Below, in pieces: positions 16,757 to 20,396 of a stretch of DNA of 64,000 bases (position 1 is the stretch's first letter; each line of letters begins with the position of its first letter). The notes beneath the pieces are model-generated. The model saw only the letters and a program-made list of their open reading frames with translations. It made no database searches and had not been told where the DNA came from. The DNA comes from Myxococcota bacterium. GTDB lineage: Bacteria > Myxococcota > XYA12-FULL-58-9 > JALHOP01. The stretch covers positions 62,001-126,000 of the forward strand of contig JALHOP010000017.1 in the NCBI GenBank assembly GCA_022842935.1, written 5' to 3'. The translations under genes were made by a program, and so were the position numbers.

Positions 16757-17194
16757 ATGAGCATACAGAAGCAAGAGTTCTACGAAGGAGCCGCCCTGCA
16801 CCGGCTCGTCTGCAGTGCACAACGCACGCTAAGAATCGCACTCGAGTCACCGCTGCTGGTCTTCGACGAGCGCCTACAGGTGCACTTCAAGCACTCGACG
16901 AAGAAGACCAGCCCCTGGGGCTTTACGTTTACACCCGATGAGCAGGCCATGCTGGAACAGCGCGCTCGCCGACTGCCGCTCGTGATCGGCTTGATATGCG
17001 GGTCCGACGGTATCGCCGCGCTCGCGCACGCCGATTACGTTCGCGTTGCACCGCGACAGAGCACAGCACTTCGCATCGCATGCTGGCGCAGGCATCGAGA
17101 GCACTTCGAGATCAGTGGCCCAAGCGGTGCGTTGCCCAGCAAAGTCGCGCCCTCCGATTGGGACAGGCTTCTTACTTGGGAGACCCCACAATGA
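16757..17194 (+). CDS. Small conserved-looking protein coupled to a Z1 ATPase, function unknown
   Basis: This 145-residue protein is not recognised. It starts at an ATG within ATGAGCATAC and ends in an ATGA overlap with the Z1 gene, so it is made as part of that operon. Its middle holds a striking block, FKHSTKKTSPWGFTFTPDEQ (residues 49-68), followed by a hydrophobic strand and LPLVIGLICGSDGIAAL. A Lys-rich strand followed by an SPW turn would suit a nucleic-acid-binding or degenerate nuclease-like fold, but no catalytic set can be assigned. Neighbours (Z1 ATPase, C5 methyltransferase) suggest a defence or modification role. Confidence 0.7.
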   Translation: MSIQKQEFYEGAALHRLVCSAQRTLRIALESPLLVFDERLQVHFKHSTKKTSPWGFTFTPDEQAMLEQRARRLPLVIGLICGSDGIAALAHADYVRVAPRQSTALRIACWRRHREHFEISGPSGALPSKVAPSDWDRLLTWETPQ

Positions 17195-19146
17195 GCGGCA
17201 AGCATACGAACGAAATTCTGACCCTATTGAGGCAACAGCTTGGTAACGACGCTGAGGTAGGCGACATTGCCGCGACAGCGCGCGAGGTCATGGGCAAGTG
17301 GGTAAATCCGGTTAGCGGCGGGAGCGAACAAACCAACGGCCTCATCTACGGTCTCGTACAAAGCGGAAAAACCGGAGTGCTCACCGTCACGGGAGCCATG
17401 GGCGCCGACGAAGGATATCGGACGCTGGTTGTGCTCACCTCTGACATCGACCCGTTGTACGAGCAGACACGTGGACGAATACAAGAGGCATTCCCGGGCA
17501 TGGATGTGCTGGGAAAGGTAGATCTTCGTGATCCGGAGTCATTCCTCCGGCGGATCAAGCTCGGCACGTGCGTTATCGTAGTCACCAAGAACGGAAAAAT
17601 TCTCGAAGCGCTGATCGACAATCTAAAGCGCGGCAACGTGCGGGGCCTTGCCTGCTTGATCATCGATGACGAGGCAGATCAGGCTAGCCTGAACACGAAA
17701 GCCCGAAAGAACGACGGCAGCCAAAGCAAGATCAACGAGCAGATCGAAGTATTGCGTGGTTTCTTTCAGAAGAACACCTATCTGCAAGTGACCGCGACAC
17801 CAGGCGCCCTCTTCCTACAAGAGGGCACGCACGCGTTTCGACCAAAGTTCACGGTATTGAGCCATCCCGGCGGAGACTATGTTGGTGGAGACGATTTCTT
17901 CTCCCAAGGGTCGGCGAATCTTGTTCGCGAGTTCCCGTTGGCCGATCTGACTGCGCTATCGGCCGGGACGCAGCCTACGCCGGGAACGCAGACACCAGCA
18001 TCACTCCTTGCAGCGCTTGACACGTTCATCATCGGCGCCACGTTCAGACGAGAGACGCAGCCCGATCAAAAGAGTGCCTTCCTGTGTCACGTCAGTACGC
18101 GAACCGCCGATCACAAGCACATCATCGACCTGCTGCGTAAATACAAATCAGACGTAGTTGAGGGGCTCAACGCGAAGGACGTTCGGCTGGTCAATCGCTT
18201 ACGAGCTGCGTTTGATGACCTCGCGAGCACTCACGACGAGTTGGGGAAATTCGACTTCACGCGGCTCCTCGCGCGGATAGCGTTCATGGCACCAGGAATA
18301 CAAGTCAAGTTGATCAACGGCGAGACGGATGAAGATGTCGCGCTTCATGCGCCTTACAACCTATTTGTCGGAGGTAATAAGCTGGGGCGCGGCGTAACGA
18401 TTAGAAATCTACTAGTCAGCTATTACGGACGTCACCCAAGAACCCCTCAAGCCGACACGGTGTTGCAACACGCTCGCATGTACGGCTACCGCAGAAAAGA
18501 CATTGGTCTGTTGCGTCTCTGGCTGCCTCCGGAACTCCGCAGTGTCTTTGTCGCCATCAATGAAATGGAGCGCAGCCTGCGCCAGCTTATCGAGCAAAGC
18601 CCTGACGAGGAGTTTCGGGGCGTCTACCTCAAGAACACGCTTCAAGCGACTCGAAAAACGGTACTCGTGCCAGGCGCTGTCGGTGTGTACACGGGCGGTG
18701 GCAGCTACAACCCTGCGCAGGTTCTTCGGAATAGCGCTGTGGCCAAGAACACGGCGAAGCTGGACGACCTTCTTGCCGATATTGCGGACAAGGACTTCGC
18801 GAAGCGAACAATCGACGATCTACAGGAGCTGGTTCAGTTGACGATGCCGGATCCCGAGGAGTCGGATCATGTCTGGAACTCTGTGGCGGTCGCAGAATCG
18901 CTCAAGCAGTGCGCCGAGATCTTAAACCAAGCCGAAGGATACGTTTACGTAGACCGAGGTCGTGAAGTTCGTGGGCGCCGCCGCGAAACACAGGGAATTC
19001 TGACCGGCGGTGAGGCGGATGCCGTACCGCACGACCGCGTAACGCTGTTCCTACTTCGTATCGAACCACGCGGTGGGGAATCTGCAGCTTGGTGGCCCCA
19101 AGTCCGCTTTCCCTCGGGGCGATATGCCTTAGCGTTTGCAATTTGA
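17191..19146 (+). CDS. Z1-domain ATPase of a DNA-modification-linked defence system
   Basis: The start is ATG 17191, overlapping the previous stop; a longer in-frame reading lies over the upstream gene in another frame and is rejected. The 651-residue protein has a P-loop GLVQSGKTG at 54-62, a DDEAD box at 159-163, the helicase-like YLQVTATPGALF near 205, and the Z1 hallmark GGNKLGRGVTIRNLL with a downstream QADTVLQHARMYGYR arginine segment. Z1 proteins are helicase-like ATPases found with methyltransferases, MutL-type ATPases or nucleases in defence islands. Here a C5 methyltransferase follows after 143 bases, but no neighbouring nuclease or MutL-like gene is seen. Confidence 0.88.
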   Translation: MSGKHTNEILTLLRQQLGNDAEVGDIAATAREVMGKWVNPVSGGSEQTNGLIYGLVQSGKTGVLTVTGAMGADEGYRTLVVLTSDIDPLYEQTRGRIQEAFPGMDVLGKVDLRDPESFLRRIKLGTCVIVVTKNGKILEALIDNLKRGNVRGLACLIIDDEADQASLNTKARKNDGSQSKINEQIEVLRGFFQKNTYLQVTATPGALFLQEGTHAFRPKFTVLSHPGGDYVGGDDFFSQGSANLVREFPLADLTALSAGTQPTPGTQTPASLLAALDTFIIGATFRRETQPDQKSAFLCHVSTRTADHKHIIDLLRKYKSDVVEGLNAKDVRLVNRLRAAFDDLASTHDELGKFDFTRLLARIAFMAPGIQVKLINGETDEDVALHAPYNLFVGGNKLGRGVTIRNLLVSYYGRHPRTPQADTVLQHARMYGYRRKDIGLLRLWLPPELRSVFVAINEMERSLRQLIEQSPDEEFRGVYLKNTLQATRKTVLVPGAVGVYTGGGSYNPAQVLRNSAVAKNTAKLDDLLADIADKDFAKRTIDDLQELVQLTMPDPEESDHVWNSVAVAESLKQCAEILNQAEGYVYVDRGREVRGRRRETQGILTGGEADAVPHDRVTLFLLRIEPRGGESAAWWPQVRFPSGRYALAFAI

Positions 19147-19289
19147 TTGGCGACGAGCGGTCGCCCAACCAGTGTTGATGTCAGAAGCAAACTGCCGCTC
19201 GAGCATCTTTCTTCGTCGGGGTCGCCGACACGGCGAACCCCCCAAGGGCGATCGACAAGGATGTCGCTGGATGCTAGAGGAACGACACC

Positions 19290-20396
19290 ATGACCCGACG
19301 TAGCGGGCGTGCGCCCTCACCTCCCCGCGGACGCAAAGGGCCGCCTACCGCGATTGACCTCTTCTCTGGAGCTGGCGGGCTATCACAGGGGCTGAAGAGT
19401 GCCGGCTTCCGGGTCATTGGAGCCGTCGAACTCGACGCGACAGCCGCAGAGACGTATCGGCTCAATCATCCCCGCGTTCAGCTATGGGAGAAAGACGTCA
19501 AGCGGGTTGCTGCGACCGAAGTCAAAAAAGCGCTCCGTCTGAAGCCTGGTCGCTTGGACGTGCTGGCTGGCTGCCCACCCTGCCAAGGCTTCTCAAGTAT
19601 GCGGACACTGAACGGACGACGGCGCATTGTAGATGACGCAAACGATCTCTTGTTCGAGTTCGTCCGCTTCGTACGCGCATTAAGACCCAAGATCGTAATG
19701 ATGGAGAATGTACCAGCTCTGGCACGCAACCATCGCCTGGTAACGTTTCAGAAGAAGCTCGAACGGCTCGGGTACCGTTGCACGCACGCAGTCGTCGATG
19801 CCGCAGACTACGGCGTACCTCAACACCGACGCCGACTCATATTTCTAGCTTCGCGAGTTGGAAGAGTCGGTCTGCCAAAAAAGGCCAAACGCACGAGAAC
19901 GGTGCGCGTTGCAATTTCGCGATTGGAAGCACCGGGGGCTAGCAAGGATCCTTTGCACGCAGTGCCCGAAAGTCGACAACCGCGAATTCGCGAGCTCATT
20001 CGGCACATCCCGGCAGACGGCGGAAGCCGAAAAGACGCGCCAGCGAAGTTCCGCCTCGATTGCCATCGGGGCTTCGACGGATTCTCGGACGTCTATGGCC
20101 GTATGAAGTGGGATGCCCCATCTCCGACAATCACCGGCGGCTGCCACAACCCGTCGAAGGGTCGCTTCCTGCATCCGACACACGATCGGGCGATCACACT
20201 TCGAGAGGCCGCTCTCCTTCAATCATTTCCCAAGGGTTATCGCTTTTCGCTAATACGCGGCAAAGAACACGCAGCGCTCCTCATAGGGAACGCCCTCCCA
20301 CCAGCCTTGATCCGCCGTGTGGCAGTCTCTTTATCGAAAGCGCTGGACGCCCACGTCCAAGGCCAGTCACAGAAGAAGAGGAAGAAGAGGTCGTGA
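19290..20396 (+). CDS. C5-cytosine DNA methyltransferase
   Basis: All main motifs are present in order in 368 residues: SAM-binding DLFSGAGG (23-30), catalytic GCPPCQGFS with Cys98, ENVP, QHRRRLIF, a target-recognition stretch of about 100 residues, and the closing GNALPP. The N-terminus before motif I is short and basic. It transfers methyl groups to cytosine C5 at an unknown site. It lies 143 bases after the Z1 ATPase on the same strand and probably belongs with it. It converges on the Zorya operon. Codon use in this and the Z1 gene looks less G+C-rich than the backbone, in keeping with transfer. Confidence 0.95.
   Translation: MTRRSGRAPSPPRGRKGPPTAIDLFSGAGGLSQGLKSAGFRVIGAVELDATAAETYRLNHPRVQLWEKDVKRVAATEVKKALRLKPGRLDVLAGCPPCQGFSSMRTLNGRRRIVDDANDLLFEFVRFVRALRPKIVMMENVPALARNHRLVTFQKKLERLGYRCTHAVVDAADYGVPQHRRRLIFLASRVGRVGLPKKAKRTRTVRVAISRLEAPGASKDPLHAVPESRQPRIRELIRHIPADGGSRKDAPAKFRLDCHRGFDGFSDVYGRMKWDAPSPTITGGCHNPSKGRFLHPTHDRAITLREAALLQSFPKGYRFSLIRGKEHAALLIGNALPPALIRRVAVSLSKALDAHVQGQSQKKRKKRS

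What the first reader, a model, noticed from the sequence alone, without database searches (positions are those of the whole stretch)
16757..20396. Candidate defence system: unknown 145-residue protein, Z1 ATPase and C5-cytosine methyltransferase without nuclease or MutL partner
Z1 ATPases usually sit with a methyltransferase plus a MutL-like ATPase or a recognisable nuclease. Here the only other partner is a small protein coupled to the Z1 gene by an ATGA overlap, with an unusual FKHSTKKTSPWGFTF block. Either the small protein is a very reduced effector, or the Z1 protein itself provides the restriction step. The set lies between a type III R-M and Zorya.
Basis: partly seen in the sequence, partly recalled or inferred. 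Interest (0 to 1): 0.6.

Follow-up and report, generated by a model that had tools for sequence, protein, structure and literature searches.

The report
Helicase paired with degenerate nuclease-fold protein
The three-gene set is real: an ATP-driven DNA motor of the CglI restriction type is paired not with its usual cutting enzyme but with a small protein that is predicted to fold like a nuclease, has lost most of the usual catalytic residues, and recurs beside the same motor in other bacteria, which points to a little-known variant of restriction-type defence.

Summary
At 16757-17194 lies a 145-aa ORF that overlaps (ATGA) a 651-aa DEAD-Z1 protein; a C5-cytosine methyltransferase follows. The Z1 protein is the motor subunit of CglI/NgoAVII-type restriction: PADLOC Helicase_II over full length, and its C-terminal domain matches the solved CglI H-subunit domain (Z 9.3, next 2.9). 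It shows no nuclease domain. The PLD nuclease that normally precedes this motor is absent from the locus, and its Pfam family from the draft genome. The 145-aa protein takes that slot. It is a conserved family under purifying selection, adjacent to Z1 in 19 other loci (Cyanobacteria, Planctomycetota, the host's own phylum). Its AlphaFold model (pLDDT 82) matches PD-(D/E)XK nucleases, best Hjc resolvase (Z 10.2), but only the catalytic lysine is invariant; no catalytic carboxylate is conserved. Cyanobacteria carry small protein + Z1 alone, without a methyltransferase. Best reading: a two-gene DEAD-Z1 module whose partner is a degenerate PD-(D/E)XK protein, joined in this lineage to a methyltransferase. 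Whether it cuts DNA is unknown; defence function is inferred. A distant subfamily without Z1 sits beside a type III Mod, the family that also flanks the set here. New variant of a known kind.

The parts
16757..17194 (+). 145-aa small protein, predicted PD-(D/E)XK (Hjc-like) fold with degenerate active site; occupies the slot of the R (PLD) gene of CglI-type systems
   Evidence: all 14 family members scanned match phrog_28860 of unknown function
16889..16891 (+). codon of K45, invariant in 16 of 16 family members; probable counterpart of the catalytic Lys of the (E)xK motif (K57 in Sso Hjc)
   Evidence: conservation; placement by order of secondary-structure elements, inferred
17191..17194 (+). 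ATGA overlap of small-protein stop and Z1 start
   Evidence: overlaps or short gaps at the same junction in relatives
17191..19146 (+). 651-aa DEAD-Z1 ATPase, H/N-subunit of CglI/NgoAVII type
17350..17373 (+). Walker A, GLVQSGKT (residues 54-61)
   Evidence: invariant Q57-T61 among six Z1 proteins
17665..17679 (+). Walker B, DDEAD (residues 159-163)
18001..18606 (+). Z1 domain (residues 271-472), with DTVLQHARMYG, close to the DThhQXuRhFG signature described for these helicases
   Evidence: signature from PMC2292703
18721..19116 (+). C-terminal domain (residues 511-642), same fold as the C-terminal domain of the CglI H subunit (6f1s)
19290..20396 (+). C5-cytosine DNA methyltransferase, 144 bp downstream; accessory in this lineage
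13180..16311 (-). neighbour: type III Mod, divergent from the small gene; the same arrangement is kept in L021
10368..13187 (-). neighbour: type III Res of the BPTD_3080 family

Best explanation
The core is a two-gene module: a DEAD-Z1 DNA translocase of the CglI H-subunit type, plus a 145-aa protein that takes the place of the PLD endonuclease (R) subunit. The small protein has a predicted PD-(D/E)XK nuclease fold resembling Hjc. Proposed working: the small protein binds the motor and supplies recognition of the target DNA (a sequence or structure; unknown), which switches on ATP hydrolysis; the motor then translocates, and foreign DNA is inactivated either by an unconventional cut by the small protein or by ATP-driven occlusion or remodelling. 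In this lineage a 5mC methyltransferase is linked and probably marks host DNA as self; in most homologous pairs it is absent. Shown here: gene pairing, motor identity, predicted fold, absence of the PLD partner, degenerate motif. Inferred: complex formation, recognition role, defence, protection by the methyltransferase.
For: Z1 is a full-length match to PADLOC Helicase_II (7e-86, residues 16-642), collinear with the N-proteins of PLD-type systems, and its C-terminal domain matches 6f1s of CglI (Foldseek prob 0.99, VIA Z 9.3 over 121 residues, next Z 2.9). In CglI/NgoAVII the R gene lies just before N, R.CglI and N.CglI form an R2N2 complex, and only R gives site recognition and activates the ATPase (PMC4267653). 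PLD-type loci fetched here show the same order and overlap, so the small gene holds the R slot. Small + Z1 adjacency recurs in 19 other loci; 12 of 13 carrier genomes tested have exactly one Z1 gene, the one at the small-protein locus. PF09565 is absent from the own genome and from 11 of 12 carriers. Model: top rows are Hjc (Z 10.2, 112 residues, 2.9 A), I-Ssp6803I, D212, RecU, SPARDA and PvuII, all of the restriction-endonuclease-like fold. Purifying selection, dN/dS 0.13-0.25.
Against: The fold rests on a predicted model (11-row alignment); Foldseek E is about 3e-3 and profile comparison with Hjc is not significant. Of Hjc's E12, D42, E55 and K57 only the lysine has a conserved counterpart, so a recognition role is guessed from the R slot, not measured. 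Nothing shows phage protection, complex formation or DNA binding. Three members of a divergent subfamily lack Z1 nearby (G137 has none at all), so the family is not strictly tied to Z1.
Confidence: 0.55

Rival explanations
1. The small protein is an active nuclease with a non-canonical site (for example K45 with E62 from the following helix, in the manner of enzymes whose glutamate has moved to a helix, or E30/H43/K45 in the window and L021 proteins), so the pair cleaves DNA in an ATP-dependent way, as CglI or Hachiman do.
For: PD-(D/E)XK fold with nearest solved relatives nearly all nucleases; K45 invariant and E62 kept in 13 of 16; two-gene nuclease + SF2 helicase logic is known from Hachiman (PMC12278908).
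Against: No acidic residue is conserved at the positions of Hjc E12, D42 or E55 in the whole family; E62 is lost in the subfamily without Z1 and shifted in L069. HamA keeps a D-E(X)K motif.
Confidence: 0.25
2. The pair does not cut: the degenerate small protein is a recognition or clamp subunit, and the motor blocks replication or ejection of foreign DNA, or exposes it to other nucleases of the cell or island (type III Res, McrBC, Zorya ZorD).
For: Loss of the carboxylates; no nuclease domain found in Z1; other nucleases lie nearby in the window.
Against: Cyanobacterial pairs stand alone among housekeeping genes, without recognised neighbouring nucleases, so recruitment of an island nuclease cannot be general.
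Confidence: 0.3
3. The whole island (type III Res-Mod, small protein, Z1, methyltransferase) is one composite system in which the small protein also serves the type III enzyme.
For: Same order and orientation of Res, Mod, small, Z1 in L021 at 48-61% identity; a distant subfamily member sits directly upstream of a Mod of the same family in L067/L068; all 3 planctomycete carriers have an adjacent Mod although Mod occurs in only 52 of 392 genomes there; Z1 is divergent from such a Mod in G205.
Against: The cyanobacterial and G071/G105/G140 pairs show no type III genes nearby; only 3 of 52 Mod-carrying genomes have the small protein; L067 and L068 are nearly the same locus; defence genes cluster anyway.
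Confidence: 0.1
4. Remnant of a CglI-type system that lost its R gene, with an unrelated small ORF in the gap.
For: The small gene lies exactly where R is expected.
Against: Conserved across phyla under purifying selection with its own invariant residues; no PLD sequence remains in the window.
Confidence: 0.02

Closest known systems
CglI / NgoAVII restriction-modification (M + PLD-B3 R protein + DEAD-Z1 N/H protein)
   Same: Same DEAD-Z1 motor including the H-subunit C-terminal domain; partner gene just upstream and overlapping; C5 methyltransferase in the set
   Different: No PLD/B3 R protein; its slot holds a 145-aa degenerate PD-(D/E)XK-like protein; M only about 26-31% identical to the M of PLD-type systems; most homologous pairs have no M
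Hachiman (HamA nuclease + HamB SF2 helicase)
   Same: Two-gene logic of a PD-(D/E)XK-like protein and an SF2 helicase (PMC12278908)
   Different: No hit to Ham models in PADLOC for either protein; helicase is DEAD-Z1; HamA keeps D-E(X)K, the small protein does not
MutL/MORC-Z1 restriction systems and MZA
   Same: Z1-domain helicase; C5 methyltransferase (PMC2292703; one search shows a Rathayibacter example)
   Different: No GHKL ATPase and no roughly 330-aa PD-(D/E)XK partner in the window; Z1 scores 98 bits against a 1500-bit cut-off for MzaC
Hjc / RecU-type PD-(D/E)XK enzymes
   Same: Predicted fold (Z 10.2 to 2wcw), GxA in helix 1 and the lysine of strand 3
   Different: Catalytic E, D and E not conserved; no significant profile match

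Membership tests
CglI/NgoAVII-type restriction | DEAD-Z1 motor with H-subunit C-terminal domain | tested here: met
CglI/NgoAVII-type restriction | PLD-family R protein with B3 DNA-binding domain beside the motor | tested here: not met
   no R sequence in the window; PF09565 absent from the draft genome
CglI/NgoAVII-type restriction | C5 methyltransferase in the set | tested here: met
   19290-20396; not of the M.NgoAVII branch
CglI/NgoAVII-type restriction | ATP-dependent site-specific cleavage | not testable with these tools
   needs biochemistry
PD-(D/E)XK nuclease superfamily (small protein) | Restriction-endonuclease-like fold | tested here: met
   predicted model only:
PD-(D/E)XK nuclease superfamily (small protein) | Conserved catalytic D...(E/Q)xK | tested here: not met
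   only K45 invariant among 16 sequences
PD-(D/E)XK nuclease superfamily (small protein) | Detectable sequence homology to a known member | tested here: inconclusive
   hhalign against Hjc not significant with shallow profiles; no meaningful Pfam hit for any of 14 members
Hachiman | HamA (DUF1837) and HamB proteins | tested here: not met
   no PADLOC Ham hit for P0002 or P0001, no DUF1837 hit in Pfam
MutL/MORC-Z1 systems (including MZA) | GHKL ATPase gene adjacent to Z1 | tested here: not met
   gene inventory and Pfam/PADLOC scans

The most novel reading that the evidence does not exclude
A stand-alone two-gene antiphage module, a DEAD-Z1 translocase plus a catalytically degenerate PD-(D/E)XK protein, which recognises foreign DNA without a cognate methyltransferase and stops it without conventional nuclease chemistry; in some lineages it has been combined with a methyltransferase and a type III R-M.
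Probability: 0.25. Interest if true: 0.75.

Novelty: new variant of a known kind. Interest (0 to 1): 0.5.

Why it matters
CglI-type restriction is known only with a PLD nuclease as R subunit. A conserved replacement by a tiny nuclease-fold protein that has lost the usual catalytic carboxylates, mostly without a methyltransferase, would mean that the DEAD-Z1 motor is a module that accepts different partners, and raises two direct questions: can the motor act without a cutting partner, and how is self told from non-self when no methylase is present. The pair is small (about 2.4 kb) and easy to clone and test.

Tried and rejected
Pfam, NCBIfam and PADLOC on the small protein: no meaningful hit; PHROGs only gave phrog_28860, unknown function. 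PDB sequence search with the family profile: only chance hits at E 0.25. Profile comparison with Hjc, with the Rathayibacter PD-(D/E)XK protein, Vsr and PLD R proteins: not significant. Phage collection tblastn: only E>=1 fragments, not relatives; viral contigs: none. Z1 tree: long branches, cannot tell whether the small protein was acquired once or several times. A weak PLDc_2 ORF downstream of Z1 in L037 is below the Pfam cut-off, and the close relative L039 has another gene at that place. Idea that L036's M-McrB-McrC-Vsr genes belong to the pair: more likely a separate LlaJI-like set. Vsr as hidden nuclease: present next to L021, L036 and L017 but absent from the own draft genome. CglI H-subunit paper (gky107) is not held in the library.
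Full report
Observation. The three genes are as described: a 145-aa ORF at 16757-17194, a 651-aa Z1 protein at 17191-19146 joined by ATGA, and a 368-aa C5 methyltransferase at 19290-20396. They lie between a type III R-M of the BPTD_3080 family and Zorya.

The motor. The 651-aa protein is a DEAD-Z1 ATPase with intact Walker A (GLVQSGKT) and DDEAD; Q57-T61 and the DDEAD box are invariant among six relatives. It matches PADLOC Helicase_II over residues 16-642 (7e-86). It is collinear with the N-proteins of PLD-type loci in Mucilaginibacter and Psychrobacter, and Neisseria gonorrhoeae carries the same PLD-type set. 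Its C-terminal 181 residues, modelled alone (pLDDT 61, so of modest quality), hit the solved C-terminal domain of the CglI H subunit first and by far (6f1s: Foldseek prob 0.99; VIA Z 9.3, 121 residues, 3.5 A; next Z 2.9). It is therefore an H/N-subunit of CglI/NgoAVII type. In those systems N alone has no detectable ATPase or only residual activity, R gives recognition and cleavage, and for CglI the two form R2N2 (PMC4267653; PMC5737866).

The missing R. No PLD R-protein sequence is present in the window and PF09565 finds nothing in the 97%-complete draft genome, while the same search rings in C. glutamicum. The small gene holds the place of R.

The small protein is a real and conserved partner. 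Homologues were found in a Calothrix and a Nostoc plasmid, in 11 genome contigs including a Phycisphaerales MAG at 54% identity, in the own phylum and in further Cyanobacteria and Planctomycetota. In 19 loci besides the window it lies next to Z1, mostly with overlapping or nearly overlapping genes, once in divergent orientation (L069). Twelve of 13 carrier genomes have exactly one Z1, the one at the small locus, and 11 of 12 have no PF09565 hit (the one weak hit, in G200, is on another contig). In L027 and L074 both genes are decayed together. dN/dS in four close pairs is 0.13-0.25. The family is rare: 5 of 195 genomes of the own phylum, 3 of 392 Planctomycetota, 9 of 386 Cyanobacteria, some of them fragments. 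The genome-contig scan was limited by sequence patterns, so its count is a lower bound. The own phylum was searched completely (195 held genomes) while the other two are larger groups, so the window's phylum is neither of them (inference).

Fold. The AlphaFold2 model from 11 family sequences has pLDDT 82 and pTM 0.78. All leading structural matches are restriction-endonuclease-like: Hjc (Z 10.2, 112 residues, 2.9 A), I-Ssp6803I 9.1, D212 8.8, RecU 8.6, SPARDA 8.0, PvuII 7.0; Foldseek E is about 3e-3 with prob near 1. Sequence profiles do not confirm it, so the fold is a prediction. Across 16 members G11, A12, K45 and F56 are invariant; K45 falls at the place of the catalytic lysine of Hjc (K57) by order of strands (an inference; no residue-level structural alignment was available), but no acidic residue is conserved where Hjc has E12, D42 and E55. 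E62 and D84 are the only widely kept acidic residues (13 of 16). The active site is thus degenerate by the classical definition; a non-canonical site cannot be excluded.

Is the methyltransferase part of it? In L021 a methyltransferase 58% identical lies on the same side of Z1 but in inverted orientation, with a Vsr gene beside it. In L036 a different methyltransferase lies nearby, within an M-McrB-McrC-Vsr set. Of the other pairs, cyanobacterial loci sit among chorismate synthase, cytochrome assembly and similar housekeeping genes, and no homologue of the reference methyltransferases was seen within about 6 kb. The window's enzyme is only about 26-31% identical to those of the PLD branch and 39% to that of a Rhizobium Z1-Vsr locus. 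So small + Z1 is the core and the methyltransferase a lineage-specific addition.

The island. Res, Mod, small and Z1 occur in the same order and orientation in L021 (48, 56, 54 and 61% identity). A divergent subfamily of the small protein lacks Z1 and lies directly upstream of a Mod of the same family in two closely similar planctomycete loci. Mod is found in 52 of 392 planctomycete genomes, so adjacency in all three small-carrying genomes is more than expected, but there are only two independent cases. G205 has a Z1 without the small protein, divergent from such a Mod. This link is recorded as an open lead.

Mechanism. Best reading: the small protein docks on the DEAD-Z1 motor as a recognition and activating subunit; ATP-driven translocation follows, and foreign DNA is stopped by an unconventional cut or without a cut. 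I put about 0.55 on the R-subunit-like role as stated; within that, cutting and non-cutting are nearly even. Self-protection by the methyltransferase is plausible only where it is present. Hachiman works with a comparable pair of helicase and nuclease (PMC12278908), but the proteins here are not Hachiman and HamA keeps its D-E(X)K motif.

Novelty. The motor is known; no model in Pfam, NCBIfam or PADLOC covers the small protein, and phrog_28860 has no function. Text searches for Z1 with defence terms in the held library gave nothing on this pair. I rate it a new variant of a known kind.

Noticed in passing
window 6035-8940 (+): McrB-like protein (AAA_5 plus Mrr_N-type N-terminal domain) and McrC (PF10117) pair upstream of the type III genes; a similar McrB-McrC pair with a methyltransferase and Vsr lies near the small-Z1 pair in L036.
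   Followed up: partly
L067:6469-6969 (-) and 3256-6270 (-); L068 same: A divergent small-protein homologue without Z1 lies directly upstream of a type III Mod in two closely similar planctomycete loci.
   Followed up: partly
L114 about 11300-13504 (+) and 7907-11179 (-): In G205 a Z1 gene without the small protein is divergent from a type III Mod of the same family, with PIN and GmrSD_N-HNH genes between Mod and Res.
   Followed up: partly
L017:4279-8001: Rhizobium gallicum plasmid: Z1 with a divergent Vsr gene and a methyltransferase 39% identical to the window's, no small protein and no PLD gene: a further Z1 arrangement in which Vsr might be the nuclease.
   Followed up: no
window 20534-27631 (-): Zorya genes run D, A, B, C in transcription order, not the usual A-B-C-D.
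   Followed up: no
window 9042-10034 (+): 330-aa ORF between McrC and the type III Res without any Pfam or PADLOC match; unknown.
   Followed up: no
L027:5998-6651: Internal deletion fuses the start of the small gene in frame to the end of Z1, an example of the pair decaying together.
   Followed up: no
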